Of a stretch of 64,000 bases of DNA, positions 2,887 through 24,432 are shown piece by piece; the first letter of the stretch is position 1; each line of letters starts with the position of its first letter. This DNA is from Sphingosinicella microcystinivorans. GTDB lineage: Bacteria > Pseudomonadota > Alphaproteobacteria > Sphingomonadales > Sphingomonadaceae. Location of the stretch: positions 4,107,501-4,171,500 of the forward strand of contig NZ_CP116005.1 in NCBI RefSeq assembly GCF_027941835.1. The letters run 5' to 3'. The notes beneath the pieces were generated by a model that saw only the letters and a program-made list of their open reading frames with translations, did not search any database and was not told the origin of the DNA. The position numbers were made by a program, and so were the translations under genes.

Positions 2887-2891
2887 TCGGC

Positions 2892-6231: not shown

Positions 6232-6249
6232 CTGGTATTCGCGGATAGG

Positions 6250-6945: not shown

Positions 6946-7209
6946 TTCTGCTCTCCTTGGATCAGGGTTTCAGCGCTTTGGCGGCGCTGAACCCTGCCTC
7001 GCGGCGAGCCGTGGGAGAGCGGGGACGCAGCGGGAATCTGCGCGGGGTGGTGCGGGCGCAGCGCAGCGAGCCACGGCCCGGCCGATTGCCGTTGCGGGGG
7101 AGAGAGGGCTGGCCCTTTCCCCCGAACTTCGTTCGCGGCGGAGGCGCGAACGATCCGGCTTTCGGAAATCGCGCGTGCGCTCTATAGGGCCGGGCGAACA
7201 GGGAAACAG

Positions 7210-7422
7210 ATGACGACGAATTTTCAGCGGGTGAGCGGGTTTATCGTGCGGCTGTCACCCGAACCGGTATGCGACGATTGCATTGCCGGGCGGCTGGCAA
7301 TTGAGAGTAGCGACGATGTCGCGAACCGCACGCGCCAGCTCGCCGGCAGTGGCGGCTTCGAGATCCGGCGGGGCATCTGTGCGCTCTGCGGCGAGATGAA
7401 ATCCGTAATCCTCAAATCCTGA
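7210..7422 (+). CDS. Small conserved-type protein with two CxxC pairs
   Basis: The 70-residue product has CDDC at residues 21-24 and CALC near 57-60, a spacing that suits a small zinc ribbon. It starts at an ATG preceded by CAGGGAAACAG. It lies divergently from the methyltransferase, in a GC-rich gap. I do not recognise the family; a role in nucleic-acid or protein contacts is only a guess from the cysteine pairs. Confidence 0.5.
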   Translation: MTTNFQRVSGFIVRLSPEPVCDDCIAGRLAIESSDDVANRTRQLAGSGGFEIRRGICALCGEMKSVILKS

Positions 7423-7642
7423 TTACCGGTACAATCGCGACGCTCGCCTAAGGTCGATACCAGGCGATCATGCACCGCAGCGGAATGTACGGGCCTTCCC
7501 CTGTGACTTGCAAAGTTTCCTGATTTACGGTTGAAGGATTCCGCTCGACATGAGCGCCGGTCCCGGGTGTTCGAAAACTACCAAAGCGCAGAAAAGTCGG
7601 GACCGGTTATTCCCCTGCGCAGAACATATCACCGGATCAGAA

Positions 7643-8068
7643 ATGGAACTTCAGGCAATGCTCGCCGCGCGCACCTTCAGCGTCTCGATAGCATGCGAAT
7701 GGCGTGCACTTTACGAGGAGATCTGGAGGCCGCAGATCTTCCCGAAATGGGCATCAGGCCTTTCAGAATCGCAGCTACTGCCGCGCGGTGATTACTGGCT
7801 TGCCGAAGGCCCGGAAGGAGCCGTTCGTATCCGGTTTACCGGCCACAACGAATACGGCGTCATGGACCATGTCGTCGATACGGGGAGCGGCGATCCCGTA
7901 CACGTGCCGCTTCGGATCGTGCAGAACGGAGACGGCGCGGAGGTGATGCTGACGCTGTTTCGTCAACCCGGGATGGATGACGGACGTTTCTCCGCCGATG
8001 CCAAATGGGTGATGCGCGATCTCCGTGCACTGAAAGCGATGGCGGAGCGCAAACCGCAACGGGACTGA
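7643..8068 (+). CDS. SRPBCC-superfamily (polyketide cyclase/START-like) protein
   Basis: The 141-residue product has the layout of SRPBCC lipid- or small-ligand-binding proteins: ARTFSVSIACEWRALYEEIWRPQIFPKWASGL, then WLAEGPEGAVRIRFTGHNEYGVMDHVVD, and the helix VMLTLFRQPGMDDGRFSADAKWVMRDLRALK. The frame is open from 7550, but homology begins at METLQ-like MELQAMLAARTF, so the ATG at 7643 is preferred. It converges on the nucleotidyltransferase-HEPN gene with a gap of five bases. Ligand unknown. Such genes are common passengers on proteobacterial plasmids. Confidence 0.7.
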   Translation: MELQAMLAARTFSVSIACEWRALYEEIWRPQIFPKWASGLSESQLLPRGDYWLAEGPEGAVRIRFTGHNEYGVMDHVVDTGSGDPVHVPLRIVQNGDGAEVMLTLFRQPGMDDGRFSADAKWVMRDLRALKAMAERKPQRD

Positions 8069-8073
8069 TGGTC

Positions 8074-8991
8074 TCAGGCGGCGCGTTCGAGCTCGTCGAT
8101 GCGCTGAAGGCACAGCGATTCAATGATACCGCGCAGGACCTCGACGCGGCTTCCGATCCACGCCAGTTCCTCGGATGTGATGCGGTAATGACGCGAATAG
8201 CGCGCCTTCACATAGGCCGCGCGCAGCAGCTCGTAGCAGCGCCGCTCGAACTTCGTCGTACCCGGCCAGACCTCGCGAAGCTGCGGCTCCAGCGCCTCGG
8301 TCTGCGAGCGCAGGCGGTTCAGATTGTGCGTCTTGGGCGAGTACAATGTGCGGACGAGAAATAGTGTGTGATAGAGCCTTTCCGTCGTCTGATGCAGATC
8401 AAACGCAGCAACCTTTGGCGCGGCATCATTCATCGCATGCTGATACTGCCTAAAAAATTGCTGGGCGCTCTCGAACCATTCTTCGTAATAGTCCTGCGTC
8501 TCGCGCAGCGCCTCTGCCGGCGATAGCGGTTGCGGCACCTCGAACGGGTGCTCCGGCTCCTCGAACAGCACGATGCCGTCGCGCAGGATATCGGTGAAAA
8601 AATAGCGCCCGCGGCGCAGCTGTGCGTTCACGTCATCGAGGCTGTGGTAGATGAGGCTGACGGGCGTACGCAGCCGTCCGTCAGCAAGCTCGGTGAGCAG
8701 CCGGTCCTCGGTCTTCGTCCAGAATTCCGGAACGTCGGTGAGGTCCTCGTGATTGACGACGACGAGAATATCGTAGTCGGAAAAATAGCGCCCGACCGGG
8801 TCCTCGACCCAATCGCCGCGGGCGTAGCTGCCGAACAGGATGATCTTCAGCAGATGCCCGCTCCGATACCGCGGCTGCGTGCGCCGCGAGATCGCCTCGG
8901 CGAAGCCCTCGCGCACGATCCCGACGACATGCGCAAGCTCGCGGCGCTTGCCTTCGGGCAGCGATACAGCCGGGTCATCGGGATATTTCAT
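8074..8991 (-). CDS. Nucleotidyltransferase fused to a HEPN domain
   Basis: The N-terminal half is a MNT-type polymerase-beta nucleotidyltransferase: IILFGSYARGDWVEDPVGRYFSDYDILVVV gives the GSxARGD helix and the paired acidic residues. The C-terminal half (about 190-300) is HEPN-like, alpha-helical, with HQTTERLYHTLFLVRTLYSPKTHNLNRL and KARYSRHYRI. In two-gene MNT/HEPN toxin-antitoxin systems the nucleotidyltransferase AMPylates the HEPN RNase; here both are on one chain, so it may be a self-neutralised pair or a nucleic-acid-related enzyme of the mobile element. ATG at 8989-8991 (MKYPDD) is used; an upstream ATG at 9015 is also possible. Confidence 0.75.
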   Translation of the reverse strand: MKYPDDPAVSLPEGKRRELAHVVGIVREGFAEAISRRTQPRYRSGHLLKIILFGSYARGDWVEDPVGRYFSDYDILVVVNHEDLTDVPEFWTKTEDRLLTELADGRLRTPVSLIYHSLDDVNAQLRRGRYFFTDILRDGIVLFEEPEHPFEVPQPLSPAEALRETQDYYEEWFESAQQFFRQYQHAMNDAAPKVAAFDLHQTTERLYHTLFLVRTLYSPKTHNLNRLRSQTEALEPQLREVWPGTTKFERRCYELLRAAYVKARYSRHYRITSEELAWIGSRVEVLRGIIESLCLQRIDELERAA

Positions 8992-9029
8992 GGCGTCAGA
9001 ATCGCGCCAAATCATATGCTTGCCAAGTC

Positions 9030-9698
9030 TTATTTACGGAATTCGTCGCGTGCATCCGCTGCCGGCGCGGTCCCGGTCGCATCGCGTTCAGGCAGCGCAA
9101 ACAGGCTCCCCCCCCCGGTGTTCGAGCGCGCCTGTGTGCCCGCGCCTCCGCCGACGAGGAACAGTGCCGGGCGCGGGGCCGAAGGCGCCGGCGGAGCGCC
9201 TTGCCGCACGCCGCAAGGCGCGGCGGGCCTGCCCGCGACCGCGGCGACATAGGCGCGTGTCTCGCGTGGCAGCGCGCGCGTGCCGGCAAGGCACTCGCCG
9301 TAGCGCGCGGGGCCGGCGTGATAGGCCGCAAACATGCCGGGAAAGCCGAAGCGGTCGTGCATCAGCCGCAGATAGGCGGCACCGGCGAGGATGTTGTCGC
9401 GGGGCGCATGCGGATTACGCCCCAGGCAAAGCACCGCGCGCATATCGGCCCAGGTGCCGGGCATCAGCTGCATGAGACCCATTGCGCCGGCGCTGCTGGT
9501 GATGGGCCGGCCGTCAAGGACGGCGCGCCCCGCGCTTTCGGCGCGCATCACGCGTTCGATCCAGTCAGCCGGAATTCCGAACCGGAGCGATGCCTCGTCG
9601 ACGAGCGGACGCCAGCGTGCCACAGCGTCGGCGCGTGCGGGCTGGGCGACTGCGAGCGCGGCCAGCAGCGCCAGCGACCGCGCAGCGCAGGCGGTCAG
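9030..9698 (-). CDS. Lytic transglycosylase (conjugation-associated, SLT domain)
   Basis: The mature region carries the SLT fold: WIERVMRAESAGR with the catalytic Glu, SSAGAMGLMQLMPGTW, and FAAYHAGPARYGECL. It is preceded by a signal peptide (TACAARSLALLAALAVAQPARADA), so it acts in the periplasm to open peptidoglycan for the mating channel. No ATG, GTG or TTG lies before the signal peptide. A CTG at 9696-9698 overlaps the TGA of the upstream TraF gene (CTGA) and is preceded by TGGAGG, so CTG is the likely start. A run of nine G in the coding strand near the C-terminus could slip. Confidence 0.8.
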   Translation of the reverse strand: MTACAARSLALLAALAVAQPARADAVARWRPLVDEASLRFGIPADWIERVMRAESAGRAVLDGRPITSSAGAMGLMQLMPGTWADMRAVLCLGRNPHAPRDNILAGAAYLRLMHDRFGFPGMFAAYHAGPARYGECLAGTRALPRETRAYVAAVAGRPAAPCGVRQGAPPAPSAPRPALFLVGGGAGTQARSNTGGGSLFALPERDATGTAPAADARDEFRK

Positions 9699-10216
9699 GG
9701 GTGCCTCCAGATCAAATGCGCCTTGCCGAGAATGTCGCGGCGTTGGCTCGGCCCGAAATACCGCCCGTCGAACGAGGCGGGATGCGCTGCGAGCAGCAGC
9801 ACGTCGCCCGCGCCGAGCCGGCGGCAGCCGTGCCATGCGGGCATCGGCCGGCCGGCGCCGTCGCGGCGCAGCCGCAGCGCGGCGACGGCGCCGTTGACGA
9901 TGACCCGGTCGTCGCTTGCGCAGACCATATCGCCGGGTATGGCGGCGATGCGTTTGATGAGCGGCACGTTCGCCGGGAGATAATGGCGGCGCGCGGCAAG
10001 CTCGCGCCAGGGCGCCGGCAGGCGGGCGGCAACGCGATCGCCGCGTGCCGGATTTCCGGCCGCCGTCACGAGATAGAGACCCGTCGGCGCGCTCGCCGAG
10101 CCGTTCCAGATGAGCAGAGGCCGCGGCCGCGCGAGGCTGACCGCGGCAAGCGCCGCGATCAGAAGCGCGGCTCCGGCCGCAGGCCACGTGCGCATCGGCC
10201 GGAGGGGCGACGTCAC
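9695..10216 (-). CDS. traF: TraF-type S26 signal peptidase of the conjugation system
   Basis: The 173-residue protein has one N-terminal membrane segment (WPAAGAALLIAALAAVSLA), the catalytic-Ser region NGSASAPTGLYLV and the Lys region PLIKRIAAIPGDMVCA, then the family's closing AHPASFDGRYFGPSQ. TraF peptidases mature and cyclise the pilin TrbC in Trb systems. The start is a GTG at 10214-10216 overlapping the TGA of the upstream HTH gene (GTGA). In related elements ParA and DUF2840 genes usually stand between the HTH gene and traF; they are absent here. It is coupled to the downstream transglycosylase. Confidence 0.85.
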   Translation of the reverse strand: MTSPLRPMRTWPAAGAALLIAALAAVSLARPRPLLIWNGSASAPTGLYLVTAAGNPARGDRVAARLPAPWRELAARRHYLPANVPLIKRIAAIPGDMVCASDDRVIVNGAVAALRLRRDGAGRPMPAWHGCRRLGAGDVLLLAAHPASFDGRYFGPSQRRDILGKAHLIWRHP

Positions 10217-10455
10217 GGCCTGCCGCCCTTCCTGCGCCCGGAAGCCCGCGCAGTTGCGCGCGACCAGGCGTCGAGATCGTCGATATGGTAGCGGATGTTG
10301 CGGAAGTGTCGCCGGAAGCGCGGCCCCGTGCCCTTGCTGCGATGGGCCTGAAGCGTCCGCGGCGAGATTCCGAGCCATGCTGCGGCCATCGCCGGATTGA
10401 GGTACGGCGATCGCGGCCGCGCGGGCCGCTCGCGTCCGGGTTCTCTTTGCGTCAT
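10213..10455 (-). CDS. AlpA/MerR-like helix-turn-helix protein
   Basis: The 80-residue basic protein contains YLNPAMAAAWLGISPRTLQAHRSKGTGPRF followed by IRYHIDDLDAWSR, the standard layout of small excisionase-like winged HTH proteins. Such proteins act as transcription regulators or recombination directionality factors on mobile elements. The frame is open to 10488, but the ATG at 10453-10455 gives the usual length. It heads the HTH-traF-transglycosylase run. Confidence 0.75.
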   Translation of the reverse strand: MTQREPGRERPARPRSPYLNPAMAAAWLGISPRTLQAHRSKGTGPRFRRHFRNIRYHIDDLDAWSRATARASGRRKGGRP

Positions 10456-10653
10456 GAGCGCGCCTCCCTGGCCAGCGCGGCGCCGCACGCGGCGCGGCGT
10501 GCCCTTGGTGCCAGTATGGGCAGGCCGTGCAGAGGCTCGAAAATCGCGCGTTCCGAATTCGAGCCTGGCGCAGCCGGAAGCCCGGCAGGCCGCGCACCCT
10601 CCGTCTGCTGCAGGAAAGGCGGCCCCGCGCGCGAGGCGCGGGGCCGAACCCGC

Positions 10654-10971
10654 TCAGTCGTAGGGGTTCCAGATGACCGCGAACGTTTCGTCGGTCTCGC
10701 CCGGCACGCGGCCGAGGTTGGCGTAGAGCCGGCGCGGTCCGAACTCCGGCGCGGCGATGCTCAGCGACACGTAGTCCCTGCCCGACGTTTCGCCGGTGCG
10801 GATCCAGCCCGCACCGATCTCGATGCCCTGGGTCAGCACGCGGTAGTCGGGCTGGGCGTCGCCGGTCTTCGTGCGGTTGGGGATGATCTCGATCCCGGCG
10901 CGGATCGAGAGGGTTTTGAGCTCGCCCTTGTAGCCCTCGCCGCTGCGCTTCACATGTCCGATTGCAGGCAT
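10654..10971 (-). CDS. DUF736 family protein
   Basis: The 105-residue protein reads MPAIGHVKRSGEGYKGELKT, IEIIPNRTKTGDAQPDYRVL, IGAGWIRTGETSGRDYVSLSI and ends ETDETFAVIWNPYD, which is the DUF736 signature. DUF736 genes are near-universal neighbours of this type of relaxase and Trb module in Alphaproteobacteria; their function is not established. The ATG is preceded by GAAGGAGAAATGAA, a strong ribosome-binding site, which rules out the longer upstream frame. Confidence 0.85.
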   Translation of the reverse strand: MPAIGHVKRSGEGYKGELKTLSIRAGIEIIPNRTKTGDAQPDYRVLTQGIEIGAGWIRTGETSGRDYVSLSIAAPEFGPRRLYANLGRVPGETDETFAVIWNPYD

Positions 10972-11652
10972 TTCATTTCTCCTTCGTGTCTCGCCCGAAC
11001 CCGTTCCGGGCGATGGGCAGACCGTCGGACCAGCCCCGAGCCGCAGTCCCGCACCCGCAAGGGCCGGAGCGTGAGCGGCGGACCTGACGCCCGGCTTGTT
11101 TGGGAGCGAAGCGGCCGCGAGGAGCCCGGCACGGGCGGGGAAAGAAGCCGTAAGGGCGGAAGGTTTCGGGACAAGGCGGCTGGTCCAGGTCAATGCCCGG
11201 TAAGCCGGGTCACGGGTACGGGGAGACGCCCTGGGGAAGAGAAGCCGCCCACAGCCACAGCAGACGCAGCGGCGGCGCTATGCCGCGAGGGATCCCCGGC
11301 ATTCGTCAGGGCCCGGTATCGAACGCGAGCTTCAGGGCGGCGGCCAGCCCGCCGGAGGAGACCCGGTGGTATCGGGGCTCGGGAAATGTTTTTTCGAACC
11401 GGCGGCACCAGGGGACAAAAACGGTTTAGCCAACAGCATGAAAGGTACAGCGCGAAGGCTATGTCTGCTTTCGCCGTATTCGGAGCACCAACGATCATCG
11501 CGCCGACGATCAGCAAGTCGGCGAAAACGCCTCCCTGCCAATCCGGGTCATTTACAGCGATTGTTCGCCATGTTCGCCCGAGAATATGGGGAGTTGAGGT
11601 CAGGAAGGTTTACTATTTTCCTAAAACACTAAGTATGACTTAGGGAATTGGA
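10972..11652. other. Gene-free stretch, 681 bp
   Basis: The left two thirds are very GC-rich and coding-like frames on both strands show no recognisable protein. The last 80 bp (about 11580-11650) turn AT-rich (TTTACTATTTTCCTAAAACACTAAGTATGAC) and probably hold the promoter of the AbiE pair. Confidence 0.5.
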
Positions 11653-11700
11653 ATGATTATAAACTCGACAATGGTTTGCAAATATGTCAAAAGACCAAGC

Positions 11701-12489
11701 ATGACTATGCGTTTTGATGGAAAACTAAACCGTCTCCAGCAAGAACTTCCCGAGGGGCTTCTTGCCGATGCCGCCTGGATGGAAGCTCAGGGATATTCAT
11801 CGGCGCTGCGTAGCCAGTATGTCCGGGCGGGCTGGCTTGAGAGTCCGGCGCGGCGCGTCTATCGCCGCTCGCGTTCACCTCTGACATGGCAGCAGGTTGT
11901 CGTTTCGCTCCAGACCGTGCTCGACCTTCCACTGGCCGTCGGCGGGCGCACTGCGCTCGAACAGCAGGGCTATGCGCATTATCTGCCCGCCGCGATGCGC
12001 GAGGTTCATCTCTATGGGCCGACGCATCCGCCGACCTGGCTGGCGAGCCTGCCGCTCGATCTCGCGTTTCGCTGGCATAACAGCCTGCGGCTGTTTCCCG
12101 GCGATGTCGACGCGCCGCCTGAGTCGAGTCCCGTCATGGTCAGCACAGGCGGTCTGGCCCTGCCCGTCCGCTACTCCAGCAAGGAGCGCGCCGTTCTCGA
12201 ATTGCTCGACGAACTGCCCGAGCGGGAGAGCTTCCAGCAGGTCGATGCCCTGATGGAGGGCCTCAGTGATCTAAGTCCGCGCCGCCTGCAAATGCTCCTT
12301 GAGGCTTGCACCAGTGTCAAGGTGAAGCGGCTCTTTCTGTTCTTCGCCAGTCGCCATGGGCACGCATGGCTCGCCCGGCTCGACACGTCGCGTGTGAACC
12401 TTGGCGCGGGCAAGCGCGTTCTTGTCAAAGGCGGCAAGCTCGACCCGCGCTACAATATCACCGTTCCGCCCGAATTCGGGGCGCATTGA
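11701..12489 (+). CDS. AbiEi antitoxin, type IV toxin-antitoxin system
   Basis: The N-terminal 90 residues form the AbiEi winged-helix domain (LLADAAWMEAQGYSSALRSQYVRAGWLESPARRVYRR). The rest matches the AbiEi C-terminal domain, with KRLFLFFASRHGHAWLARLDTSRVNLGAGKR and the closing GGKLDPRYNITVPPEF typical of the family. AbiEi represses the operon and counters AbiEii. The ATG at 11701 gives MTMRFDGKL; an in-frame ATG at 11653 adds 16 residues that do not look conserved. The toxin gene starts five bases downstream. The AT-rich upstream region is a likely promoter. Confidence 0.85.
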   Translation: MTMRFDGKLNRLQQELPEGLLADAAWMEAQGYSSALRSQYVRAGWLESPARRVYRRSRSPLTWQQVVVSLQTVLDLPLAVGGRTALEQQGYAHYLPAAMREVHLYGPTHPPTWLASLPLDLAFRWHNSLRLFPGDVDAPPESSPVMVSTGGLALPVRYSSKERAVLELLDELPERESFQQVDALMEGLSDLSPRRLQMLLEACTSVKVKRLFLFFASRHGHAWLARLDTSRVNLGAGKRVLVKGGKLDPRYNITVPPEFGAH

Positions 12490-12494
12490 TCGTC

Positions 12495-13412
12495 ATGGCC
12501 TTTCTCGACATCTATCGGCGGCAGGTTGCGCTCCTCATTCGCACCCTCCCCTTCGTGGCCGGGGAGAGCGCCTTTGCCCTCAAGGGCGGCACGGCGATCA
12601 ATCTGTTCGTGCGCGACATGCCGCGCCTTTCGGTGGACATCGACCTCACCTGGCTGCCGGTTGCGGACCGTCGCACCTCGCTTGCCGCGATGGATGCCGC
12701 GATGCTGCGGATCAGGACGAGGATCGAGCGCGGTATTCCCGGTGCGCAGGTCAATGTCTCGCGATCGGCGGATGCGAAAATCGTCACAAAGCTGATCGTG
12801 CGCGCCGGAGATGTGCAGATCAAGATCGAGGTGACGCCGGTGCTGCGCGGCACCGTCTATGCCCCTCGCCTTATCAGCGTGGCGCCTGCGGTCGAGGATG
12901 CTTTCGGCTTTGCCGAGATTCAGGTCGTGTCCTTTTCTGATCTCTACGCGGGCAAGATCGTGGCCGCACTTGACCGTCAGCATCCCCGCGACCTTTTTGA
13001 CGTGCGAGATCTGCTGGCGAACGAAGGCATCGACGACGAATTGAGATGCGCCTTCCTTGTCTATCTTGCAAGCCACCCCCGCCCGATGGCTGAAGTCCTT
13101 GCTCCGAACCGCAAGTCGCTGCGCGGTGAGTTCGCGCGCAGTTTTGCCGGAATGACGCATGAGCCGGTCGACCTCGCCGAACTTGAGGAGGCGCGCGAAG
13201 CGATCATCACCGCAATGGTCGCTGACATGCCGGAGGCGCATCGGCATTTTCTTCTCGGATTCAAGCGCGGGGATCCGGACTGGGATCTGCTCGGCATAGC
13301 CGATGCGCAACACCTGCCCGCCGTCCTGTGGAAACTTTTCAATCTCGGCAGGCTGACCGCCGACAGGCGGCGCGCGCTGGTCGACACGCTTGAAAATATA
13401 CTGTTCCCGTAA
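12495..13412 (+). CDS. AbiEii/AbiGii-family nucleotidyltransferase toxin
   Basis: The 305-residue protein has the AbiEii nucleotidyltransferase motifs: FALKGGTAINLFV (residues about 29-41) and LSVDIDLTWLP with the paired Asp residues, then SDLYAGKIVAALDRQHPRDLFDVRDLL, the family's conserved core. AbiEii toxins transfer nucleotides to RNA and cause growth arrest, giving phage abortive infection and element stabilisation. The start is the ATG at 12495 just after the AbiEi stop; a longer frame from 12306 is an overlap artefact. The gene ends 50 bp from a convergent DUF2285 gene. Confidence 0.88.
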   Translation: MAFLDIYRRQVALLIRTLPFVAGESAFALKGGTAINLFVRDMPRLSVDIDLTWLPVADRRTSLAAMDAAMLRIRTRIERGIPGAQVNVSRSADAKIVTKLIVRAGDVQIKIEVTPVLRGTVYAPRLISVAPAVEDAFGFAEIQVVSFSDLYAGKIVAALDRQHPRDLFDVRDLLANEGIDDELRCAFLVYLASHPRPMAEVLAPNRKSLRGEFARSFAGMTHEPVDLAELEEAREAIITAMVADMPEAHRHFLLGFKRGDPDWDLLGIADAQHLPAVLWKLFNLGRLTADRRRALVDTLENILFP

Positions 13413-13462
13413 GTGACACTCGCCTCCCAATCAGGCACGGCTCATGCCCCTGCGGCAGACGC

Positions 13463-14740: not shown

Positions 14741-15568
14741 CTACGCCCAGGAAATGCAGTCGCGCATCTCGATAAGGCCCGCGCTCATTGCGGCGAGCGC
14801 GAGCTGCGTCCGGCGCGTGACTCCGAAACGCTGCCTCGCCGTCTTCAGATAGCGTGTCACGGTCTCCTCGCTCAGACCAAGGATCCGCGCGATCTCCCAG
14901 TCGGTTTTCCCCTGCGCCATCAGCACCACACATTCACGCTCGCGCGGACTCAAATGCGGACGACGGGACGGGGTGCCAAGAATTGACGATGCGGCAAGAA
15001 ACGCCCGCTGCGCGATGAAATCTGCGGCAAGAAGGGCACGCGGTGCAACGCAGTGCCGCGGCCTCACCGCAAAGGAACAGCTCGCGGTACGACCGCCCGG
15101 CGCGTGCAGCGGCACCGTGTAGCCGTTGCCGAGTCCGGCGCGGCGGGCAGCCGCAAGATGCGCGCGCTCCATATCGCTCAAACGCATGAGCGCGGGCAGC
15201 TCGCTCCACCGGAACCCCGCAAGACGGCAACTCGCCGCGTGCCAGGCGGGATCATGCCGCCAGCCGCCAAGCATGAATGCGTCGGCCCACCCGGGCGGAT
15301 AATTGTGGAGGAGAAGAAGATCGGGAGGCGGCCTTGCAAGATTTGCATGTTCAGCGATCGCGAAAAAGGAAAACCCGAGATCGCTGGCGGCCGCGCCAAG
15401 CAGTGCAGCAAGCGCCGGCAGCGTCCCGGCACGTGCCACGTTTGCCGCAAACGAGCCCGCGACATCCAGAGCGAAGTCCGGCGCGCCTGGCGCAGGATGA
15501 AGTTCAGATGGCGCCAACGATGTTGCGCCTTCGTCAACTTGCCCCCTGCGCTCACCCGGAAGCACCAC
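14741..15568 (-). CDS. LuxR-type regulator with autoinducer-binding domain
   Basis: The 275-residue protein has an autoinducer-binding domain (LLLLHNYPPGWADAFMLGGWRHDPAWHAA, then FRWSELP) with the Trp/Tyr/Asp ligand-pocket pattern of AHL receptors. The C-terminal LuxR HTH reads LSPRERECVVLMAQGKTDWEIARILGLSEETVTRYLK. It would bind an acyl-homoserine lactone and act on lux-box-like DNA. The first 25 residues before PDFALDV look unconserved, so the start may be internal. It is divergent from a second LuxR gene, with 240 bp between them. Confidence 0.88.
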   Translation of the reverse strand: MVLPGERRGQVDEGATSLAPSELHPAPGAPDFALDVAGSFAANVARAGTLPALAALLGAAASDLGFSFFAIAEHANLARPPPDLLLLHNYPPGWADAFMLGGWRHDPAWHAASCRLAGFRWSELPALMRLSDMERAHLAAARRAGLGNGYTVPLHAPGGRTASCSFAVRPRHCVAPRALLAADFIAQRAFLAASSILGTPSRRPHLSPRERECVVLMAQGKTDWEIARILGLSEETVTRYLKTARQRFGVTRRTQLALAAMSAGLIEMRDCISWA

Positions 15569-17609: not shown

Positions 17610-18524
17610 ATGCCCGCACCTGCTCTTGCCCTGCAAGGCGCCGACGACTGGACCTGCCGATTGTCCTCGCAAGGTTATTGCATCATCCCGGGATTGCTTC
17701 CGGAGGACGAAATCACGGCGCTCAATGCCGCGCTTGATCCGGATTTTGCGCAAACGCCGTTCTCGATCGGCGGCTTCTTTGGCGCGCGCACCAAACGCTT
17801 TGGCCGACTTCTTGTGCGAGCGCCTGCGGGAAGGCGCCTTGCAGAACATCCCACCGTGCTCGGCGTGGTTCAGAATATTCTCGGGCCCTGGTGCGATCAC
17901 ATACAGCTCAATCTCATGCAAGCGATCGAGATTCATCCTGGCGAACTCGCGCAGATGCCGCACCGCGATCAGGATATGTATCCGTGCGAGAAGGGCCGCA
18001 TGGAATATCTCGTCAACGTCATGTGGCCGCTGGGGATCTTTTCCGAGGACAATGGTGCGACACGGATCTGGCCGGCCACCCACGGCGCGGCTGCGACCGC
18101 CGAATTGCCCGACGGCGCCGGCATTGCCGCGTGCTGCGGACCCGGCGACGCGATCCTGTTCCTGGGATCCGTTCTGCATGGCGGCGGCGCAAACCGGACG
18201 GCAACGCCGCGGCGCGGCATCGTCGTGGGCTATTCGCTCGGGTGGCTCAAACCTTATGAGAACCCATGGCTCGCCTATCCACCGGAGATCGCGCGGCAGT
18301 TCCCGGAAAGCCTGCAGGCGCTCATCGGCTATCGCCAGCATCGCCCCAACCTCAATAATTATGAGGGCCAATGCCCGTCAGTGCTGCTGCGCGGCGGCGC
18401 GCCCGGGCCGCTTGCCGCGGTGGATGCGCTGACGCCGGAGCAGACGGAGCTGATCGCCGCTTATGCGCGCCACGCAGCCTCCGGAAATGCGACAGCACAG
18501 GTGGCCAGCGACAGCGCGATATGA
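17610..18524 (+). CDS. Phytanoyl-CoA dioxygenase (PhyH) family Fe(II)/2-oxoglutarate enzyme
   Basis: The 304-residue protein shows the iron-binding HxD in QMPHRDQDMYP, the distal His in GSVLHGGGANRT, and an Arg-containing strand (RTATPRRGIVVGYSL) that would bind 2-oxoglutarate. The ATG at 17610 follows CCGGAGATCTGCC; a GTG at 17574 is less likely. The substrate is unknown. luxI-phyH pairs are, to my knowledge, common in sphingomonads. Because a lasso cluster lies just downstream, hydroxylation of the peptide is an alternative that cannot be excluded. The stop overlaps the GntR start (ATGA). Confidence 0.85.
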   Translation: MPAPALALQGADDWTCRLSSQGYCIIPGLLPEDEITALNAALDPDFAQTPFSIGGFFGARTKRFGRLLVRAPAGRRLAEHPTVLGVVQNILGPWCDHIQLNLMQAIEIHPGELAQMPHRDQDMYPCEKGRMEYLVNVMWPLGIFSEDNGATRIWPATHGAAATAELPDGAGIAACCGPGDAILFLGSVLHGGGANRTATPRRGIVVGYSLGWLKPYENPWLAYPPEIARQFPESLQALIGYRQHRPNLNNYEGQCPSVLLRGGAPGPLAAVDALTPEQTELIAAYARHAASGNATAQVASDSAI

Positions 18525-19132
18525 GCCCGGGCCTGACGATGGAGCGCGTTTACGACGCGCTCAAGACACACCTCATGTCGGGCGCGCTGCTCCCGCGCGA
18601 GCGCCTCGATCCCGCGCGCCTTGCCGTCGAACTCAACACGAGCACGACGCCGGTGCGCGATGCCCTGCACCGGCTGATGGGCGAGCGTCTTGTCGAGGGC
18701 TGGCCGCACGAGGGCTTTCATGTGCCCACCGTATCGGAAGTCCGGCTCCGCAATCTCTATACCTGGAACCAGATGCTGCTGACGACCTGCCTGAAATTAC
18801 ACACGCCAACAATCGCTGCCCTGACCGAACCGACGCGCGGCACGGACGCTCCCGATATTCCTCACGCCGTCGCGCAGCTGTTCGCGGAGCTGGCGCATCG
18901 CGCCGGTAATGAGGAATGGCACGCAGCGATCATCAACACCGGTAATCGGCTGCATGCGGTCCGTCATGCCGAGGCGCATGTCTTTGATGATCTCGAACCG
19001 GAATTCCAGGCACTGTCCGCCGCCAGCCGCACCTTGCAAGGCGCGCCGTTGCATCAGGCGATTGCACGCTATCACCGGCGACGTATCCGCGCGGTGGCTG
19101 CGATCTGCAGCGCATGCGGACAGGCGCGCTGA
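18521..19132 (+). CDS. GntR-family transcriptional regulator
   Basis: The N-terminal 75 residues are a GntR winged helix (MERVYDALKTHLMSGALLPRERLDPARLAVELNTSTTPVRDALHRLMGERLVEGWPHEGFHVP). The remaining 125 residues look like a shortened, divergent FCD-like effector domain, so the ligand is not predictable. The ATG overlaps the PhyH stop; an alternative ATG lies at 18539. It stands between the quorum-sensing operon and the lasso operon, 100 bp before the precursor gene, and is a plausible local regulator of either. Confidence 0.85.
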   Translation: MSPGLTMERVYDALKTHLMSGALLPRERLDPARLAVELNTSTTPVRDALHRLMGERLVEGWPHEGFHVPTVSEVRLRNLYTWNQMLLTTCLKLHTPTIAALTEPTRGTDAPDIPHAVAQLFAELAHRAGNEEWHAAIINTGNRLHAVRHAEAHVFDDLEPEFQALSAASRTLQGAPLHQAIARYHRRRIRAVAAICSACGQAR

Positions 19133-19232: not shown

Positions 19233-19358
19233 ATGAAACGCACACAGAAGATGGATGTCCGCACGCTCGGCAAGGCGAGCGTCGAGACGAAGGGCCCGGT
19301 GGGATTCAACGGCGACGCGCAGCTCGCCCGCGACCCGGCCGGCCTCAGCCGCGACTGA
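19233..19358 (+). CDS. Lasso peptide precursor (A protein)
   Basis: The 41-residue precursor has a 20-residue leader, MKRTQKMDVRTLGKASVETK, with the required Thr at position -2. The core starts with Gly1 and has Asp8, so the ring is GPVGFNGD (Gly1 amide to Asp8), and the 13-residue tail is AQLARDPAGLSRD. An 8-residue Gly-Asp macrolactam is a standard proteobacterial lasso ring. The core shares the pattern G-P-x-G-x-x-G-D-x-x-L and a GLS-x-D ending with sphingonodin I, as I remember that sequence. The ATG follows AGAAGGAGAGCATAC. B and C genes follow at once. Residue masses sum to 2094.02 Da monoisotopic for the closed lasso, 2112.03 Da linear. Confidence 0.9.
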   Translation: MKRTQKMDVRTLGKASVETKGPVGFNGDAQLARDPAGLSRD

Positions 19359-19370
19359 CAGGAGGGTGAG

Positions 19371-19396
19371 GACGCGCGGCCATGCGGCCGCGCGTC
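19371..19396 (+). promoter_or_regulatory. Strong hairpin between lasso A and B genes
   Basis: GACGCGCGGCC (19371-19381) pairs perfectly with GGCCGCGCGTC (19386-19396) over a 4-base loop. No U-run follows, so it is more likely an attenuator or an RNA-stabilising 3' end that keeps precursor transcript in excess over B and C. Confidence 0.65.
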
Positions 19397-19421
19397 CAGC
19401 CTTCCGGCAGATCTCCGCAAT

Positions 19422-20078
19422 ATGGTCTGGACCCTGCCTCAAAGCGTCAGCTTCTGCGACGTTCACGGCCGGCTCGTCTTTCTCGACAGCGCGGCCGACC
19501 TCTACCTCAGTCTCCCCGAGGCTGCGGAAGCGGTATTCCGCCGCCTGATGGCAGGCGAGACCATCTTCGGCGCGCCCTCCGACATACCACCCGGGCTCGT
19601 CTCTGCAGGTCTGCTTGTCGAGGGACCGAAGGGTCAGCCGCTGGCACCCTGCAAATCTGCAGACATCCGCGCCAGCCTCCTCGACCAGCCCCCCGCGCCT
19701 GACAATCGTCATGTGCCGGGACTTGCCATCGCACTTGCACGAACGGCACTTGCTCTTCGTCTCATCGGGCTCGATCGAACGCTCCGCAAACTATCACATC
19801 ATGCCCCTGCCCTGTCGACGCAGGACGCACACGCGAATGCTGGCCCTGTTGTCGCGGCGTTCGAGCGGCTGGGCATGCTCGCAACACCGCACGAGCAATG
19901 TCTGGTACGCTCGATCGCGCTCGGGCGCTATCTGCGCCGCCGCGGATTAGCTGTCGACATCGTTCTCGGCACACGGCTGCGCCCGTTCAGCGCGCACGCA
20001 TGGGTCCAGCTCGGGGACACGGTCCTCAATGACCAGCTCGATACTGTGCGTAATTTCACGCCGATCCGTGTCGTGTGA
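19422..20078 (+). CDS. Lasso peptide B protein: leader recognition plus leader protease
   Basis: Residues 1-75 are a PqqD-like recognition element (VWTLPQSVSFCDVHGRLVFLDSAADLYLSLPEAAEAVFRRLM). Residues about 100-218 are a transglutaminase-like cysteine protease with Cys160 (HEQCLVRSIALGRYL), His192 (SAHAWVQL) and Asp204 (VLNDQLD). It binds and removes the leader so that the C protein can close the ring. The two functions are fused, as is usual in Proteobacteria; Actinobacteria split them. The next gene overlaps its stop (TGATG). Confidence 0.92.
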   Translation: MVWTLPQSVSFCDVHGRLVFLDSAADLYLSLPEAAEAVFRRLMAGETIFGAPSDIPPGLVSAGLLVEGPKGQPLAPCKSADIRASLLDQPPAPDNRHVPGLAIALARTALALRLIGLDRTLRKLSHHAPALSTQDAHANAGPVVAAFERLGMLATPHEQCLVRSIALGRYLRRRGLAVDIVLGTRLRPFSAHAWVQLGDTVLNDQLDTVRNFTPIRVV

Positions 20079-21787
20079 TGACGCCGCGCTTCCTTGCCAA
20101 CATCCGCGCCTCGTCGCCTGATGACCGGATCGCCGCACGCATGAAGGATGCCGGGCTTGCCTGCATTCTCGCTTCCGAGCGTCTGCAGGTGTTCGCGGGC
20201 GGTATCGAGATGTGCCCTCTCGAGAACGACGTCGGTGTTATCCTCGGGTTGCTTCATGCCCATCCCCTGCGCAATGCCGGGCCGCCTGACACGCGCGCCA
20301 TTCTCGCCACGAATGGACGCTGCCTCACCGCGTCCCATTGGGGAAATTACGTCGCCCTCTGGTCGGATGGCGCAGAGGTGCGAGCCTTGCGCGCACCGTT
20401 TGGAGATCAGGATGCTTTTTACAGCACACACCGCGGCAGTGTTGTCATCGCCTCCGACCTTGCACTTCTGGAAGCCGCGCTTCAGGCGCGCTTTACATGC
20501 GCATGGACGCACGTTGCCGCGCATCTCGCCGGGCGGGGCCTGCGCGGGGCGGACACCTGCCTTGCGGGCGTCCGCGAGTTGCTTGGCGGCGAATGTCTTG
20601 TGGCCAGCCCGGAGGGCATCGGTACGGAGACGCTCTGGTCGCCCTGGGATTTCACGCAGCCCGAAAGAGTGCTCACCATCGAGGAAAATGCGCAGCGTCT
20701 TCGCGAGCTTGCAGACACATGCATCGCCGCACGCGCCGCGCCGTTCGAACATATCCTCATCATGCTCTCGGGAGGTCTCGATTCATCTATCCTCGCTGCA
20801 TCCGCTGCGAAGAGCGGTGCGCGGCTCAGCGCACTGACGTTCACCACCGGCGATCCGAGCGGCGATGAACGCCGCTACGCCGAAGCGGTTTCGGCCCATT
20901 TCGGCATTCCGCTTGTCAACGCAGAGCTCGCGCTCGACGCGGTTGATATCAGCCGGTCCGCCGCCGCGCATTTGCCCCGCCCGATTGCGCGCGCGTTCGC
21001 GCAGGCGATCCGCGCTTGCAAGCGCGAGGCCGCGTCAGGCATCGGCGCCGATGCCGTCTTCGATGGCGGCGGCGGCGACAATCTGTTCTGTTCGCTTCAA
21101 TCTGCAGCGCCGCTCGCCGACCGGCTGCGCGCCCGGGAGATTGGCCCGTCGGTATGGCGGACAGCGCTCGACATTGCGGAGCTCGCGGATAGCAATGTGC
21201 TGACGGTCGCAGCGCATGGGATTGCGCGCGCATGGTTCAGACCGCCGGACTATCGGTGGCAGCCGGATTTGCGCTTTCTGTCGGGCGATGTCGCAAGGGC
21301 TGCATCAGCACTTGCGACGCACCGGTGGCTCAAGACCCCGCGCGGCGCGCTTCCAGGCCGCGCGGCACATGTTGCCCTGATGATTGCGGTTGAGAACCTC
21401 ATCGAAACGTGGCCGGGGCCGCTGCCCGAACTGGCGCCGCTTATGGCGCAGCCGCTCATCGAGCATTGTCTCGGCATCCCGAGCTGGGAGTGGGTTCGCG
21501 CCGGCCACAACCGATGGGCCGCGCGGCAGGCGTTTGCGGAGAGGCTCCCGCGGATGATCACGGCGCGGCGTTCGAAAGGTACGCCGGACAGCTTCTCGGC
21601 GGCGCTGTACGAGACGGGCCGAAGTACGCTTTCGGAACTGCTGCTGGACGGTGTTCTCGTGCGTGAAGGCATTCTGGACCGGGCCGCACTCGAAAACACC
21701 CTCCGCGATACCACGCCGGTCAAGGGGCACGACCATTTGCGTATTCTCGCCATTGGAGATGTCGAGGCCTGGGCGCGCGGCTTTTGA
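20078..21787 (+). CDS. Lasso peptide C protein: macrolactam synthetase (asparagine-synthetase-like)
   Basis: The 569-residue protein has an N-terminal glutaminase-like domain and a C-terminal synthetase domain with the ATP-pyrophosphatase loop SGGLDSSILA at residues 231-240. The Cys needed for glutamine hydrolysis is absent at the N-terminus (MTPRFLAN), as in lasso C proteins, which adenylate the acceptor Asp/Glu side chain and join it to Gly1. IGADAVFDGGGGDNLFCS fits the family's second conserved region. The ATG at 20078 overlaps the B stop; a GTG at 20075 is also in frame. Its last 27 codons are partly duplicated at 22110-22220. Confidence 0.92.
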   Translation: MTPRFLANIRASSPDDRIAARMKDAGLACILASERLQVFAGGIEMCPLENDVGVILGLLHAHPLRNAGPPDTRAILATNGRCLTASHWGNYVALWSDGAEVRALRAPFGDQDAFYSTHRGSVVIASDLALLEAALQARFTCAWTHVAAHLAGRGLRGADTCLAGVRELLGGECLVASPEGIGTETLWSPWDFTQPERVLTIEENAQRLRELADTCIAARAAPFEHILIMLSGGLDSSILAASAAKSGARLSALTFTTGDPSGDERRYAEAVSAHFGIPLVNAELALDAVDISRSAAAHLPRPIARAFAQAIRACKREAASGIGADAVFDGGGGDNLFCSLQSAAPLADRLRAREIGPSVWRTALDIAELADSNVLTVAAHGIARAWFRPPDYRWQPDLRFLSGDVARAASALATHRWLKTPRGALPGRAAHVALMIAVENLIETWPGPLPELAPLMAQPLIEHCLGIPSWEWVRAGHNRWAARQAFAERLPRMITARRSKGTPDSFSAALYETGRSTLSELLLDGVLVREGILDRAALENTLRDTTPVKGHDHLRILAIGDVEAWARGF

Positions 21788-22220
21788 CGCGTCACCCAGG
21801 CCGACTGCGCCCTCAGAGGCAGGCCGGCAGATTTGTAGTCAATGGTCCGCTGATTGGTATTTTGAAATGCCGCCATCCAGAGCGTGTTCGGCAACAACCG
21901 CCGATATCATGGCTGTCAGGGTCAGTGGCTCGTGGTACGCTTGACGCCGGAACGCTGACTCGCACGCGCCAGCCGGGTGGTCCAGGACCGGAGTGCAGTT
22001 CACGCGAAAACTGTTCTTGCATGATCCTCGAAGACCCGACGGAGCCATTCCTGTTTTCCCGCTCTGCCAATTTAACCCGGCTCATTCTGGCTTCCGCGAT
22101 GGGTTTCCCGATACGACGCCCGTCAAGGGGGCACAACCATTTGCGCATTCTCACTGCCGCAGATGTCGAGGCCTGGGCGCGCGGTTTTTGACGCGTCACC
22201 CAGGCCGACTGTACCCTCAG
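21707..22220 (+). repeat. Direct repeat: 3' end of the lasso C gene and a decayed second copy
   Basis: The segment 21707-21821 (last codons of C plus 35 bp beyond the stop) recurs at 22110-22220 with about a dozen differences and one extra G that breaks the frame. Both copies contain GATGTCGAGGCCTGGGCGCG and a following GACGCGTCACCCAGGCCGAC. The 290 bp between them show no recognisable gene. The second copy abuts the isopeptidase fragment and is best read as the relic of another C gene or of a duplication. Confidence 0.8.
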
Positions 22221-22227
22221 GGACTGG

Positions 22228-22998
22228 CTATTTCGGAGGCTGGCGCATCGCCTCCCAGCGCCTGTATTGTGCTGCCTTCGCAGGACTGTCATCGCGCTTG
22301 CCGCGGAGCCAGAATTCGAACCAGTCGAGGCTGCGTTCCCACGTTGCCTGCTTGTGGACAGGTTGCCACCGGATGTGGCGCTCGTCGGGGTAGATGTACA
22401 TCTCGACAGGCTTTCCGAGTTCAGTCAGCGCCGTCCAAGCCTGAAGCGAAAGCAGATATTCCTGGTCGGCGAGCTGCATCAGGATCGGCGTATCGATGCG
22501 CGCAGCATTCTGTGCGATCGATGCCGGCGCCCAGAATTCCGGGTCAGGCTTCGTCGCTTTCGGATACCCCTGCCCCTGCATCGCGCGCGCCCAGACGGGA
22601 CCGCCGTAGGTCGTCACCGATTCGGGTTCGATGCAGCAGCTGCTCATCGCCGCGGCGGCAAACAGATCGGAGTTGATGAGTGCGAAGGCGACGGTGCTGG
22701 CACCGTCGCTGAGCCCCGTAATGCCGATGCGGGCCGGGTCGGCGATGCCCATGTCGATCACCTTGCGAACACCGGTCTCAAGCCCCGAGAGGAGGCTGCG
22801 CCGTTCGGCCCAGCCCTTGTTGTTGATCGTCATCAGCTCGTTATCATCCTTGGGGTTCGCCTTCGCCGTCGCGTAAAATGGCGTCTGTTCGTAGCTGAGC
22901 ACGGCAAATCCGCGCGCAGCAAAGGCGTGCACCGGATAATCCTCTCCGGTCCCGCCGCGCAGGAAACCGTCGCTGTGATACTGGATAACTACGATTGA
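22228..22998 (-). pseudogene. Lasso peptide isopeptidase, C-terminal fragment (5' part lost)
   Basis: About 256 codons remain. They begin SIVVIQYHSDGFLRGGTGEDYPVHAFAARGFAVLSY, a sequence that in Atxe2-type isopeptidases lies well inside the protein. An in-frame TAG at 23002-23004 follows upstream and no propeller domain is present. The retained alpha/beta-hydrolase domain has the nucleophile GLSDGAS, an Asp in LMQLADQEYL and the His in YPDERHIRW. The family linearises lasso peptides; full members are near 680 residues, so roughly two thirds, the N-terminal beta-propeller, is gone. The break coincides with the start of the foreign integrase region. Confidence 0.85.
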
Positions 22999-23151
22999 GG
23001 TCTACTGGCGTCTATCAACCTCCATGGAACAACTCTAAGTCTATGTTTTTAAAGGGTTGATCGTCCATCGAGCGATTCTGAAAGCTGGACAAATCCAGTG
23101 CTCATGTGTGTAATGGAGTGTGTAACGGGCCAAACTGGAGGCGTTATACAC
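22996..23151. other. Left junction of the second mobile element (probable attL region)
   Basis: Isopeptidase homology ends near 22996 and the integrase starts at 23152. The 150 bp between are AT-richer than either side (TTTTTAAAGGGTTGATCG) and contain no tRNA. The matching right end is not in the window, so the core att sequence cannot be defined. Confidence 0.55.
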
Positions 23152-24432
23152 ATGGCACTCACAGCACTCAATCTTCTCTCGGCGCGCAAAGTGGAAACGG
23201 CGCAGCCCAGGCCCAAGGTGTACCAACTCCGGGACGGAGGCAGCCTCTTTTTGCGCGTTCAGCCCAACGGCTCCAAGCTCTGGTGGTACCGCTACCGGCT
23301 GGGCGGCGCTGAACAGGTGTACTCAATCGGGGTGTACCCAAAGGTCACGCTGGAGGCAGCCCGTGCGGAACGGGACCGGGCAAAGGCGTTGGTCAAGAAG
23401 GGCCTCGACCCCATCGTGGAGAAAAAGGCGGCGATCGCCCTCCAGGCCGACACATACGAACGCACGTTCGAGACCGTTGCTCGGGAGTGGATCGTCAGCA
23501 ATGCTCACTGGAGCGAGTACTACACCAACCAGGTCACCAGCTACCTTGAGAAGGATGTTTTCCCCCGGATTGGCAAGTTGCCGATCAGCAGCATCAGGGC
23601 TCCACATCTGCGCCCCATCATCAAGGATGTGGCGGCTCGTGGCGCGAAGACTGTGGCGATCCTCATCCGCCAGTGGTGTGGGCAAATCTTCAGTTATGCG
23701 GCTGCCCAAGGTCTCTGCGAATACGATCCTGCCGCCTTGCTCAAGGGACTGGTCAAGCGCCCTCAGGTCCGCCACAACCCTCCGTTGACATGGGCAGAGA
23801 TCCCGGACTTTCTCAATCGTGTGGACAACGAAGGGGGTTACCAGACGACAGTCCTCGCCCTCAAGCTGATGGCTTTGACCTACGTGCGCACCGTAGAACT
23901 GCGCAAGGCCTCCTGGGAAGAGTTCGACCTGGACAACGCCATGTGGTCGATTCCGTCCGAGCGCATGAAGATGCGACGCCCCCATCTGGTTCCCCTGTCA
24001 CGGCAGGCGGTGGCCGCTCTTAGGGAACTACATGCTCTAACTGGCGGCGGCAAAGTATTGTTCCCGAGCTACAGAAAGCCGGGACAAGTGATGTCGGCAA
24101 CGACGCTCAATCAAGCACTCAAGCGCATGGGTTATGGCGGACGGTTTTCGTCCCATGGCTTCCGCTCGACCGCAACGACGATCCTTGGACTGTTGGGATA
24201 TCCGGAGAAGCGGGTCGATCTTCAACTCGCTCATTCCAAAAAGAGCAAGGACTCATCGCGCGCGCCCTACGATCACACGAAGTTTGTGGAGTCCCGCAAG
24301 GTAATCATGCAGGACTGGGCTGACATCCTTGACTCATTGCAGGCAGGGAAACCCGTTGAAGGGGTCACGAAGGCGTTTGGCCCCATGTCGAAGCGTAGAA
24401 CGGCGCTGCTCCGTGTCATAGAGCGCGAGTGA
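23152..24432 (+). CDS. Tyrosine-type integrase (P4-like, DUF4102 N-terminus)
   Basis: The 426-residue protein has the N-terminal DUF4102 region (LRDGGSLFLRVQPNGSKLWWYRYRLGG, VYPKVTLEAARAERDRAKALVKKGLDP), a SAM-like core-binding domain, and a catalytic domain with the first Arg in TYVRTVELRKASWEE, the SHGFRSTATT box, and a Tyr in RAPYDHTKF. It would integrate and excise the element whose cargo fills the rest of the window. The ATG at 23152 is used; the open frame from 23098 adds unconserved residues. Codon use and the neighbouring ICEclc-type genes separate it from the sphingomonad DNA to the left. Confidence 0.92.
   Translation: MALTALNLLSARKVETAQPRPKVYQLRDGGSLFLRVQPNGSKLWWYRYRLGGAEQVYSIGVYPKVTLEAARAERDRAKALVKKGLDPIVEKKAAIALQADTYERTFETVAREWIVSNAHWSEYYTNQVTSYLEKDVFPRIGKLPISSIRAPHLRPIIKDVAARGAKTVAILIRQWCGQIFSYAAAQGLCEYDPAALLKGLVKRPQVRHNPPLTWAEIPDFLNRVDNEGGYQTTVLALKLMALTYVRTVELRKASWEEFDLDNAMWSIPSERMKMRRPHLVPLSRQAVAALRELHALTGGGKVLFPSYRKPGQVMSATTLNQALKRMGYGGRFSSHGFRSTATTILGLLGYPEKRVDLQLAHSKKSKDSSRAPYDHTKFVESRKVIMQDWADILDSLQAGKPVEGVTKAFGPMSKRRTALLRVIERE

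What the first reader, a model, noticed from the sequence alone, without database searches (positions are those of the whole stretch)
19233..21787. Lasso peptide cluster with a new predicted core, ring Gly1-Asp8
Precursor, B and C genes are complete. The predicted product is a 21-residue lasso with ring GPVGFNGD and a 13-residue tail, related in pattern to sphingonodin I but different in sequence (two Arg in the tail). Calculated monoisotopic mass is 2094.02 Da, [M+H]+ 2095.03.
Basis: partly seen in the sequence, partly recalled or inferred. Interest (0 to 1): 0.75.

Follow-up and report, generated by a model that had tools for sequence, protein, structure and literature searches.

The report
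Quorum-sensing-linked lasso peptide gene cluster
A bacterium carries genes for a knotted "lasso" peptide in one operon-like row with genes for a cell-to-cell signal, an arrangement repeated in many related genera, and here a large mobile DNA element has split the enzyme that would normally cut the peptide.

Summary
Window 19233-21787 has complete lasso A, B and C genes; the precursor passes Pfam Subterisin's cut-off; Gly1-Asp8 fits the family (D/E at core position 8 in 62 of 72 unique cores, at 9 in the other 10); the mass arithmetic is right.

(1) luxR-luxI-phyH-gntR run straight into A-B-C. In 397 family genomes, 53 of 81 subterisin-type clusters have a listed luxI within 20.5 kb, about 1 expected; in 31 of 81, from 15 genera, it lies just upstream, and 30 of those show the order luxI-phyH-gntR-B-C. 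(2) A locus with a subterisin precursor contains an AHL synthase already shown to work, NovI_Nsub3. I found no paper joining the two subjects, within ten searches of an open-access library. (3) The isopeptidase is split by an element of about 86.8 kb.

Best reading: an isopeptidase-type lasso system linked to AHL quorum sensing. AHL control is inferred, not shown; a lux box search failed. The identical core occurs in Sphingosinicella microcystinivorans.

The parts
14741..15568 (-). LuxR-type regulator 1 (autoinducer-binding + GerE), divergent
   Evidence: Pfam PF03472 and PF00196; 88% identical in L188 and L024
15810..16562 (+). LuxR-type regulator 2, upstream of luxI
   Evidence: Pfam PF03472 and PF00196
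16973..17584 (+). LuxI-type acyl-homoserine-lactone synthase
   Evidence: Pfam PF00765, 87.1 bits against cut-off 24; R23, F27, W33, E43, D45, D48, R69, E99, R102 in 31 of 31 lasso-linked LuxI
17610..18524 (+). PhyH-family dioxygenase, 25 bp after luxI
   Evidence: Pfam PF05721; H118, D120, H190, R201 in 32 of 32 aligned rows (32 of 36 found); that these are metal and 2-OG ligands is recalled
18521..19132 (+). GntR-family regulator; start overlaps the end of phyH by 4 bp
   Evidence: Pfam PF00392
19150..19167 (+). Conserved promoter/operator-like element CCGTATAAAATTTCGATA, 65 bp before A
   Evidence: only copy in window and in the 4.53-Mb genome at up to 2 mismatches; core CGTATAAANTT once each in 17 of 33 related loci, each within 360 bp before the B frame
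19233..19358 (+). Lasso precursor gene A (leader 20 aa + core 21 aa)
19293..19355 (+). Core GPVGFNGDAQLARDPAGLSRD; predicted ring Gly1-Asp8
19361..19405 (+). Strong RNA hairpin between A and B, candidate attenuator or mRNA stabiliser
   Evidence: -42.3 kcal/mol for 19356-19425, z -4.96
19422..20078 (+). Lasso B (B2 cysteine peptidase)
   Evidence: NF033537, PF13471, C160/H192
20078..21787 (+). Lasso C, Asn-synthetase-like cyclase
   Evidence: PF00733, ATP motif residues
22228..22994 (-). C-terminal (hydrolase) part of AtxE2-type lasso isopeptidase, cut off at its 5' side
   Evidence: NF033523 positions 403-638; PF00326; junction
22976..22994 (.). Left end of the integrated element: 19 bp that overlap, imperfectly, with the other end (genome C1 near 4217302) when both halves are aligned to the intact gene
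23098..24432 (+). Tyrosine integrase of the element
   Evidence: PF22022, PF13356, PF00589
58150..60087 (-). TraI_2 relaxase/helicase of the element
   Evidence: PF07514, PF07515
62050..63573 (-). TraG_N conjugation protein of the element
   Evidence: PF07916

Best explanation
This is an isopeptidase-type lasso peptide system of the subterisin family whose producing arm is joined to an acyl-homoserine-lactone (AHL) quorum-sensing cassette. Proposed working: LuxI makes an AHL; LuxR with AHL raises the luxI-phyH-gntR transcript at high density; the lasso system's own GntR regulator, on that transcript, acts at the conserved element before A; B cuts after Lys20 and C closes the Gly1-Asp8 ring round the tail. 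The peptide is recognised by the cluster's STN-type TonB receptor, which signals through FecR and FecI to the uptake arm, and the isopeptidase opens it. In this strain an integrated element of about 86.8 kb splits the isopeptidase, so the peptide should build up uncut. Shown here: genes, motifs, gene order, conservation, linkage far above chance, and the split. Inferred: AHL control, GntR binding at the element, signalling by the peptide, loss of isopeptidase activity, and the chemical product.
For: A, B, C families and active-site residues. luxI-phyH gap 25 bp, phyH-gntR overlap 4 bp. 31 of 81 clusters have luxI on the same strand 1.8-5.3 kb upstream; all 31 also have luxR, phyH and gntR, 30 of 31 B and C, and those 30 have the order luxI-phyH-gntR-B-C on one strand. 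53 of 81 have a listed luxI within 20.5 kb against 1.09 expected; upstream or downstream linkage in 26 of 28 genera. luxR-luxI-phyH-gntR also found on the other arm in three annotated plasmids. L072, with a subterisin-type precursor, holds both primers of novI_Nsub3, 699 bp apart as in the paper; that synthase was reported to make C8, C8-OH, C9-OH, C10-OH and C12-OH HSLs (passages of PMC5012321). CGTATAAANTT in 17 of 33 type-I or far-upstream loci, each at A, against 1 in 1,006,315 bp of control loci. TonB receptor with STN domain, FecR, ECF sigma. Isopeptidase split.
Against: No lux box shown: best 20-mer palindromes before luxI average 7.19 against 6.95 in shuffles. The element before A suggests A has its own promoter, so A need not be on the luxI transcript. 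27 of 81 clusters have no listed luxI within 28 kb (some are cut by contig ends), so quorum sensing is not essential to this kind of system; this genome's own second cluster is one of them. luxI-phyH also occurs without lasso genes: of 58 sampled luxI loci 31 have phyH and 1 has lasso B. GTATAAA precedes A in only 18 of 30 type-I loci. Lasso-linked LuxI proteins are not an exclusive clade.
Confidence: 0.7

Rival explanations
1. Hitch-hiking: the LuxI cassette controls conjugation or another function of a mobile element, and the lasso cluster is only a neighbouring cargo.
For: Downstream-linked (type-II) clusters often lie by conjugation genes: 13 of 21, and 10 of 27 unlinked ones, as on plasmids PP1Y Lpl and UT26S pCHQ1. 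Gan et al. describe luxR-luxR-luxI-phyH-X-virB in sphingomonads (passages of PMC4288048). Eight of 58 luxI loci without lasso also have such genes.
Against: In the window's arrangement (type I) 1 of 31 loci matches any of the 14 conjugation proteins used as queries within its fetched stretch (the window's own relaxase-like gene at 3871-6024 lay outside that stretch). gntR, a constant of isopeptidase clusters, is packed behind luxI-phyH. Linkage on either arm in 26 of 28 genera.
Confidence: 0.17
2. Ordinary GntR-controlled lasso cluster; luxI-phyH upstream is co-inherited but AHL does not control A.
For: A has its own conserved element. GntR before the precursor is the published constant of isopeptidase clusters (passages of PMC9266682). 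No lux box shown.
Against: Linkage 53 seen against 1.09 expected; luxI-phyH-gntR packed as one transcription unit.
Confidence: 0.2
3. PhyH is a tailoring enzyme that hydroxylates the lasso peptide, so the product is the core +15.995 Da.
For: An Fe/2-OG enzyme, CanE, hydroxylates canucin A's precursor (passages of PMC9266682). Conserved His/Asp residues intact. Cluster 2 of this genome keeps phyH without a nearby luxI.
Against: PhyH goes with luxI, not with lasso genes: 31 of 31 type-I loci, 31 of 58 luxI loci away from subterisin-type precursors, but 1 of 27 lasso loci without luxI.
Confidence: 0.12
4. The cluster is decaying: the split isopeptidase marks loss of function and the peptide is no longer made.
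For: Isopeptidase cut by the element; a duplication after C.
Against: luxR, luxI, phyH, gntR, A, B, C, TonB, FecR and FecI are all open and 88-98% identical to S. microcystinivorans, which fits a recent insertion.
Confidence: 0.15

Closest known systems
Subterisin cluster (Novosphingobium subterraneum = Sphingomonas subterranea) and its luxI novI_Nsub3
   Same: Same family model (PF24178) and same row luxR-luxI-phyH-gntR-B-C | isopeptidase-TonB-FecR-FecI in locus L072; that its core is subterisin is recalled
   Same: Identical 21-residue core; genes 88-98% identical
   Different: Isopeptidase in one piece, no element
Lasso cluster of plasmid pCHQ1, Sphingobium indicum UT26S
   Same: GntR-A-B-C and TonB-FecR-sigma, with phyH and luxI about 13-15 kb downstream; core GMGSGSTDQNGQPKNLIGGISDD (that this is sphingonodin II is recalled)
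   Different: luxI is on the far side of the uptake arm, the plasmid is conjugative, no gntR beside that luxI, and the (incomplete) gene table lists no isopeptidase
AtxE2/astexin and benenodin-type isopeptidase clusters
   Same: GntR, A, B, C, isopeptidase, TonB receptor, sigma/anti-sigma (passages of PMC9266682); the intact cluster-2 isopeptidase matches AtxE2 5txc at 7.5e-39
   Different: The review passages mention no luxI ('quorum' 0 hits); here it is part of the row
Sphingomonad luxR-luxI-phyH quorum-sensing units (Gan et al. 2013, 2015, 2016)
   Same: Same luxR-luxI-phyH order (passages)
   Different: Those three texts have 0 hits for 'lasso'

Membership tests
Isopeptidase-type lasso peptide cluster | Precursor with Thr at -2, Gly1 and Asp/Glu at 7-9 | tested here: met
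   T19, G21, D28; D/E at position 8 in 62 of 72 unique cores (T-x-G was used to find the cores, so only the D/E count is independent)
Isopeptidase-type lasso peptide cluster | B2 peptidase with catalytic Cys/His and Asn-synthetase-like C with ATP motif | tested here: met
Isopeptidase-type lasso peptide cluster | GntR before A; isopeptidase, TonB receptor and FecR/FecI convergent after C | tested here: met
   the isopeptidase is split by the element
Isopeptidase-type lasso peptide cluster | Threaded product of the predicted mass | not testable with these tools
   needs LC-MS/MS and carboxypeptidase tests
Subterisin family (PF24178) | Score over the curated cut-off | tested here: met
   50.5 bits against 27
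Benenodin family (NF033522) | Score over the curated cut-off | tested here: not met
   32.6 bits against 33
LuxI/LuxR AHL quorum-sensing unit | LuxI family with conserved residues next to luxR | tested here: met
   (which residues are catalytic is recalled)
LuxI/LuxR AHL quorum-sensing unit | AHL production | not testable with these tools
   reported for NovI_Nsub3 in PMC5012321 (passages), not for this LuxI
LuxI/LuxR AHL quorum-sensing unit | lux box at target promoters | tested here: inconclusive
   palindromes before luxI no better than shuffles
Integrative conjugative element | Integrase, conjugation genes, repeats at both ends in a target gene | tested here: met
   the end repeat is short and imperfect (best exact repeat was 11 bp, elsewhere); transfer not tested

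The most novel reading that the evidence does not exclude
AHL quorum sensing and lasso peptide cell-surface signalling form one two-stage circuit in sphingomonads. AHL turns on the lasso peptide at high density; the threaded peptide is the second signal, sensed by its STN-type TonB receptor through FecR/FecI; and that sigma factor turns on the isopeptidase, which erases the signal. The strain in the window has lost the eraser to an integrated element.
Probability: 0.33. Interest if true: 0.82.

Novelty: new variant of a known kind. Interest (0 to 1): 0.62.

Why it matters
A 2022 review calls the function of isopeptidase-containing lasso peptides enigmatic (passages of PMC9266682). A conserved tie to AHL quorum sensing gives a direct, cheap test: add or remove a known AHL in a type strain and measure the peptide. 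It would also give the sphingomonad luxI-phyH units described in 2013-2016 (passages) a candidate product. The split isopeptidase offers a natural strain in which the uncut peptide should build up.

Tried and rejected
Lux box before luxI: palindromes no better than shuffles, dropped. Rfam at gathering cut-offs and tRNA scan of the window: nothing. Exact repeat at the element's ends: best 11 bp and not at the junction; the junction was then found from the intact relative. PDB match for the L072 core: none, so the mature length of subterisin stays recalled. Isopeptidase at class level: 2 of 289 genomes at E <= 1e-80, this genome included, too few to ask whether the luxI link reaches other families. 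PhyH as tailoring enzyme: ranked low because PhyH goes with luxI. PhyH conservation was spoiled by short rows and redone on 32 of 36.

Limits of the counts: the luxI list showed 150 places from 120 of 122 genomes, so linkage counts are lower bounds. C tree 74 of 81 loci (no C frame of 400 aa in the rest; quick method). No precursor found by my model in L098 and L099, odd reads in L104 and L123, one wrongly parsed core from L023 left out. Of 97 luxI places away from precursors, 58 were fetched at random, several on short contigs. In type-II loci luxI itself lay outside the fetched stretch, which showed luxR in 13, gntR in 8 and phyH in 4 of 21. Of 25 plasmid records with a C match (15 listed), 6 were opened; 5 have luxI near, P6W has none in 25.7 kb. 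Of 4 named genome loci, 2 have luxI; the other 2 are contig-cut MAG stretches without one. L019 was fetched and not read.
Full report
What is there. The precursor passes the Pfam Subterisin cut-off and misses the NCBIfam benenodin cut-off narrowly. B is a lasso B2 protein and C an Asn-synthetase-like cyclase. Among relatives, Cys160 and His192 of B are kept in 79 of 79 and Ser231, Gly232, Gly233, Asp235 and Ser236 of C in 74 of 74 aligned rows. The mass arithmetic is right.

The core. I compared cores from 81 subterisin-type loci: the window cluster, the second cluster of the same genome, three genus relatives and 76 places from a search of 397 family genomes. Of 72 unique cores, 62 have Asp or Glu at position 8 and the other 10 at position 9, so Gly1-Asp8 is well supported. 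One caution on mass: the precursor in L072 reads ...GPPGDRIEFGVLAQLPGLDRD, whereas subterisin as I recall it ends at ...QLPG. If the same trimming happens here, the product is a 17-mer of [M+H]+ 1623.79. No tool call could check this.

The wider cluster. Upstream lie two luxR genes, luxI, phyH and gntR. The luxI-phyH gap is 25 bp and phyH overlaps gntR by 4 bp. An 18-bp element, CCGTATAAAATTTCGATA, ends 65 bp before A. It is the only copy in the 4.53-Mb genome at up to two mismatches. Its core, CGTATAAANTT, occurs once each in 17 of 33 type-I or far-upstream loci, every time within 360 bp before the B frame, and once in 1,006,315 bp of control loci. GTATAAA is found before A in 18 of 30 type-I loci, 0 of 20 type-II and 0 of 27 unlinked loci. 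A hairpin of -42.3 kcal/mol lies between A and B.

The split isopeptidase. After C, on the minus strand, comes the hydrolase part of an AtxE2-type isopeptidase (model positions 403-638); its N-terminal part (positions 3-412) lies at genome C1:4217307-4218500. The G001 relative has the gene in one piece; the two pieces align to it at 95% and 97% and overlap by 19 bp. The inserted stretch runs from window 22994 to about C1:4217302, about 86.8 kb. It begins with a tyrosine integrase and carries TraI_2 and TraG_N. Beyond it follow the STN-type TonB receptor, FecR and an ECF sigma factor. Isopeptidases are reported to act only on peptides of their own clusters (passages of PMC9266682), so the intact isopeptidase of the genome's second cluster is not expected to stand in.

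How general the luxI link is. A luxI search over 397 family genomes set against 81 clusters from 66 genomes gives 31 with luxI upstream on the same strand at 1.8-5.3 kb (type I), 21 with luxI 10.0-19.4 kb downstream beyond the uptake arm (type II) and one at 20.1 kb upstream: 53 of 81 within 20.5 kb. Uniform placement of the listed luxI places predicts 1.09. All 31 type-I loci also have luxR, phyH and gntR; 30 have B and C, all in the order luxI-phyH-gntR-B-C on one strand; L104 shows neither B nor C; 29 have an isopeptidase and 28 each TonB, FecR and FecI. Type I occurs in 15 genera, type II in 13, either in 26 of 28. On the C tree the labels are clustered, with 6 changes for type I, 5 for type II and 9 for unlinked (quick method).

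Type II in annotated records carries luxR-luxI-phyH-gntR beyond the sigma factor: Sphingopyxis indica pMC4, Blastomonas RAC04 and Novosphingobium PP1Y Lpl; L187 shows luxI-phyH-gntR. In UT26S pCHQ1 phyH and luxI lie there without gntR beside them. Type I is seen in annotated Sphingomonas paeninsulae and, by model search, in N. malaysiense (L189). P6W has no luxI in its 25.7-kb stretch. Of 25 plasmid records with a C match, 6 were opened and 5 have luxI near.

A link to experiment. PMC5012321 (abstract, outline and passages read) cloned three AHL synthases of N. subterraneum DSM 12447 and noted a GntR gene directly after phyH for novI_Nsub3. Both of its primers match L072, spanning 11536-12234, 699 bp as in the paper's contig positions. 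L072 holds the subterisin-type precursor. That synthase was reported to make C8, C8-OH, C9-OH, C10-OH and C12-OH HSLs. So one lasso cluster of this kind already contains a validated AHL synthase.

Literature. The three texts on sphingomonad luxI that I opened (PMC4288048, PMC3704786, PMC5012321; passages) have 0 hits for 'lasso'. The lasso review PMC9266682 has 0 for 'quorum', and PMC11006600 (first part and passages) has 0 for 'quorum', 'luxI' and 'autoinducer'. Ten full-text searches, not all aimed at this question, gave no title or abstract joining the two. Five listed papers that hold both kinds of words were then opened (PMC10915500, PMC8776678, PMC6963729, PMC11019792, PMC11878206; passages) and none links luxI to a lasso cluster in the passages shown; other listed papers were not opened. 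Subscription papers are mostly not held, so this is not proof of novelty.

What speaks against. luxI-phyH units exist without lasso genes: of 58 randomly fetched luxI places (of 97), 31 have phyH, 6 gntR and 1 lasso B. No lux box could be shown. Conjugation genes, by 14 query proteins, lie in the stretch of 13 of 21 type-II loci, 10 of 27 unlinked, 1 of 2 far-upstream, 8 of 58 luxI loci without lasso and 1 of 31 type I, so hitch-hiking is a fair reading for type II and a weak one for type I. PhyH goes with luxI rather than with lasso genes: 1 of 27 unlinked lasso loci has it. The lasso-linked LuxI proteins fall in one group of 45 with 13 others (SH-aLRT 93, quick tree): a subfamily, not an exclusive one. 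The link cannot be judged outside the family.

Verdict. The first finding is a real, fairly ordinary new lasso core. The larger finding is that the window's cluster is of a conserved quorum-sensing-linked kind, and that its isopeptidase is split by a mobile element. Gene content, order, linkage and the split are shown; regulation by AHL, the role of the 18-bp element and signalling by the peptide are inferred.

Noticed in passing
window 24432-57041: The integrated element carries what look like metabolic genes: phosphoketolase, acetate kinase, PhaC, DUF3141, LpxR, an ABC transporter and an outer-membrane efflux protein (10 of its larger frames scanned).
   Followed up: partly
window 21702-22220: Relative to S. 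microcystinivorans, about 115 bp at the end of the C gene are present twice, with about 290 extra bp between.
   Followed up: partly
window 1561-13430: Left of the luxR genes: HipA, HNH, DUF3363 relaxase-like, HEPN/nucleotidyltransferase and AbiEi genes, a defence/mobile neighbourhood.
   Followed up: no
L005:6945-17601 (genome C1 about 3825742): A second lasso cluster in the same genome, core GPPGLPFPDALGAFAQQGLSND, with phyH but no luxI near.
   Followed up: partly
genome C1:2840845-2840970 (L019): A third, short isopeptidase-end match.
   Followed up: no
L060, L062, L063, L097, L107, L115, L125: Several type-I clusters carry two different precursors.
   Followed up: no
L057-L059, L075, L086, L088, L113, L114, L122, L127: Type-II lasso clusters next to a Trb conjugation set, which suggests lasso clusters as cargo of conjugative elements.
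   Followed up: partly
L083, L089, L093, L094, L100, L111, L113, L114, L116, L122, L127: Other clusters have a different TATAAA element before A, near ATTATAAAWTNGA, perhaps matching another GntR type.
   Followed up: no
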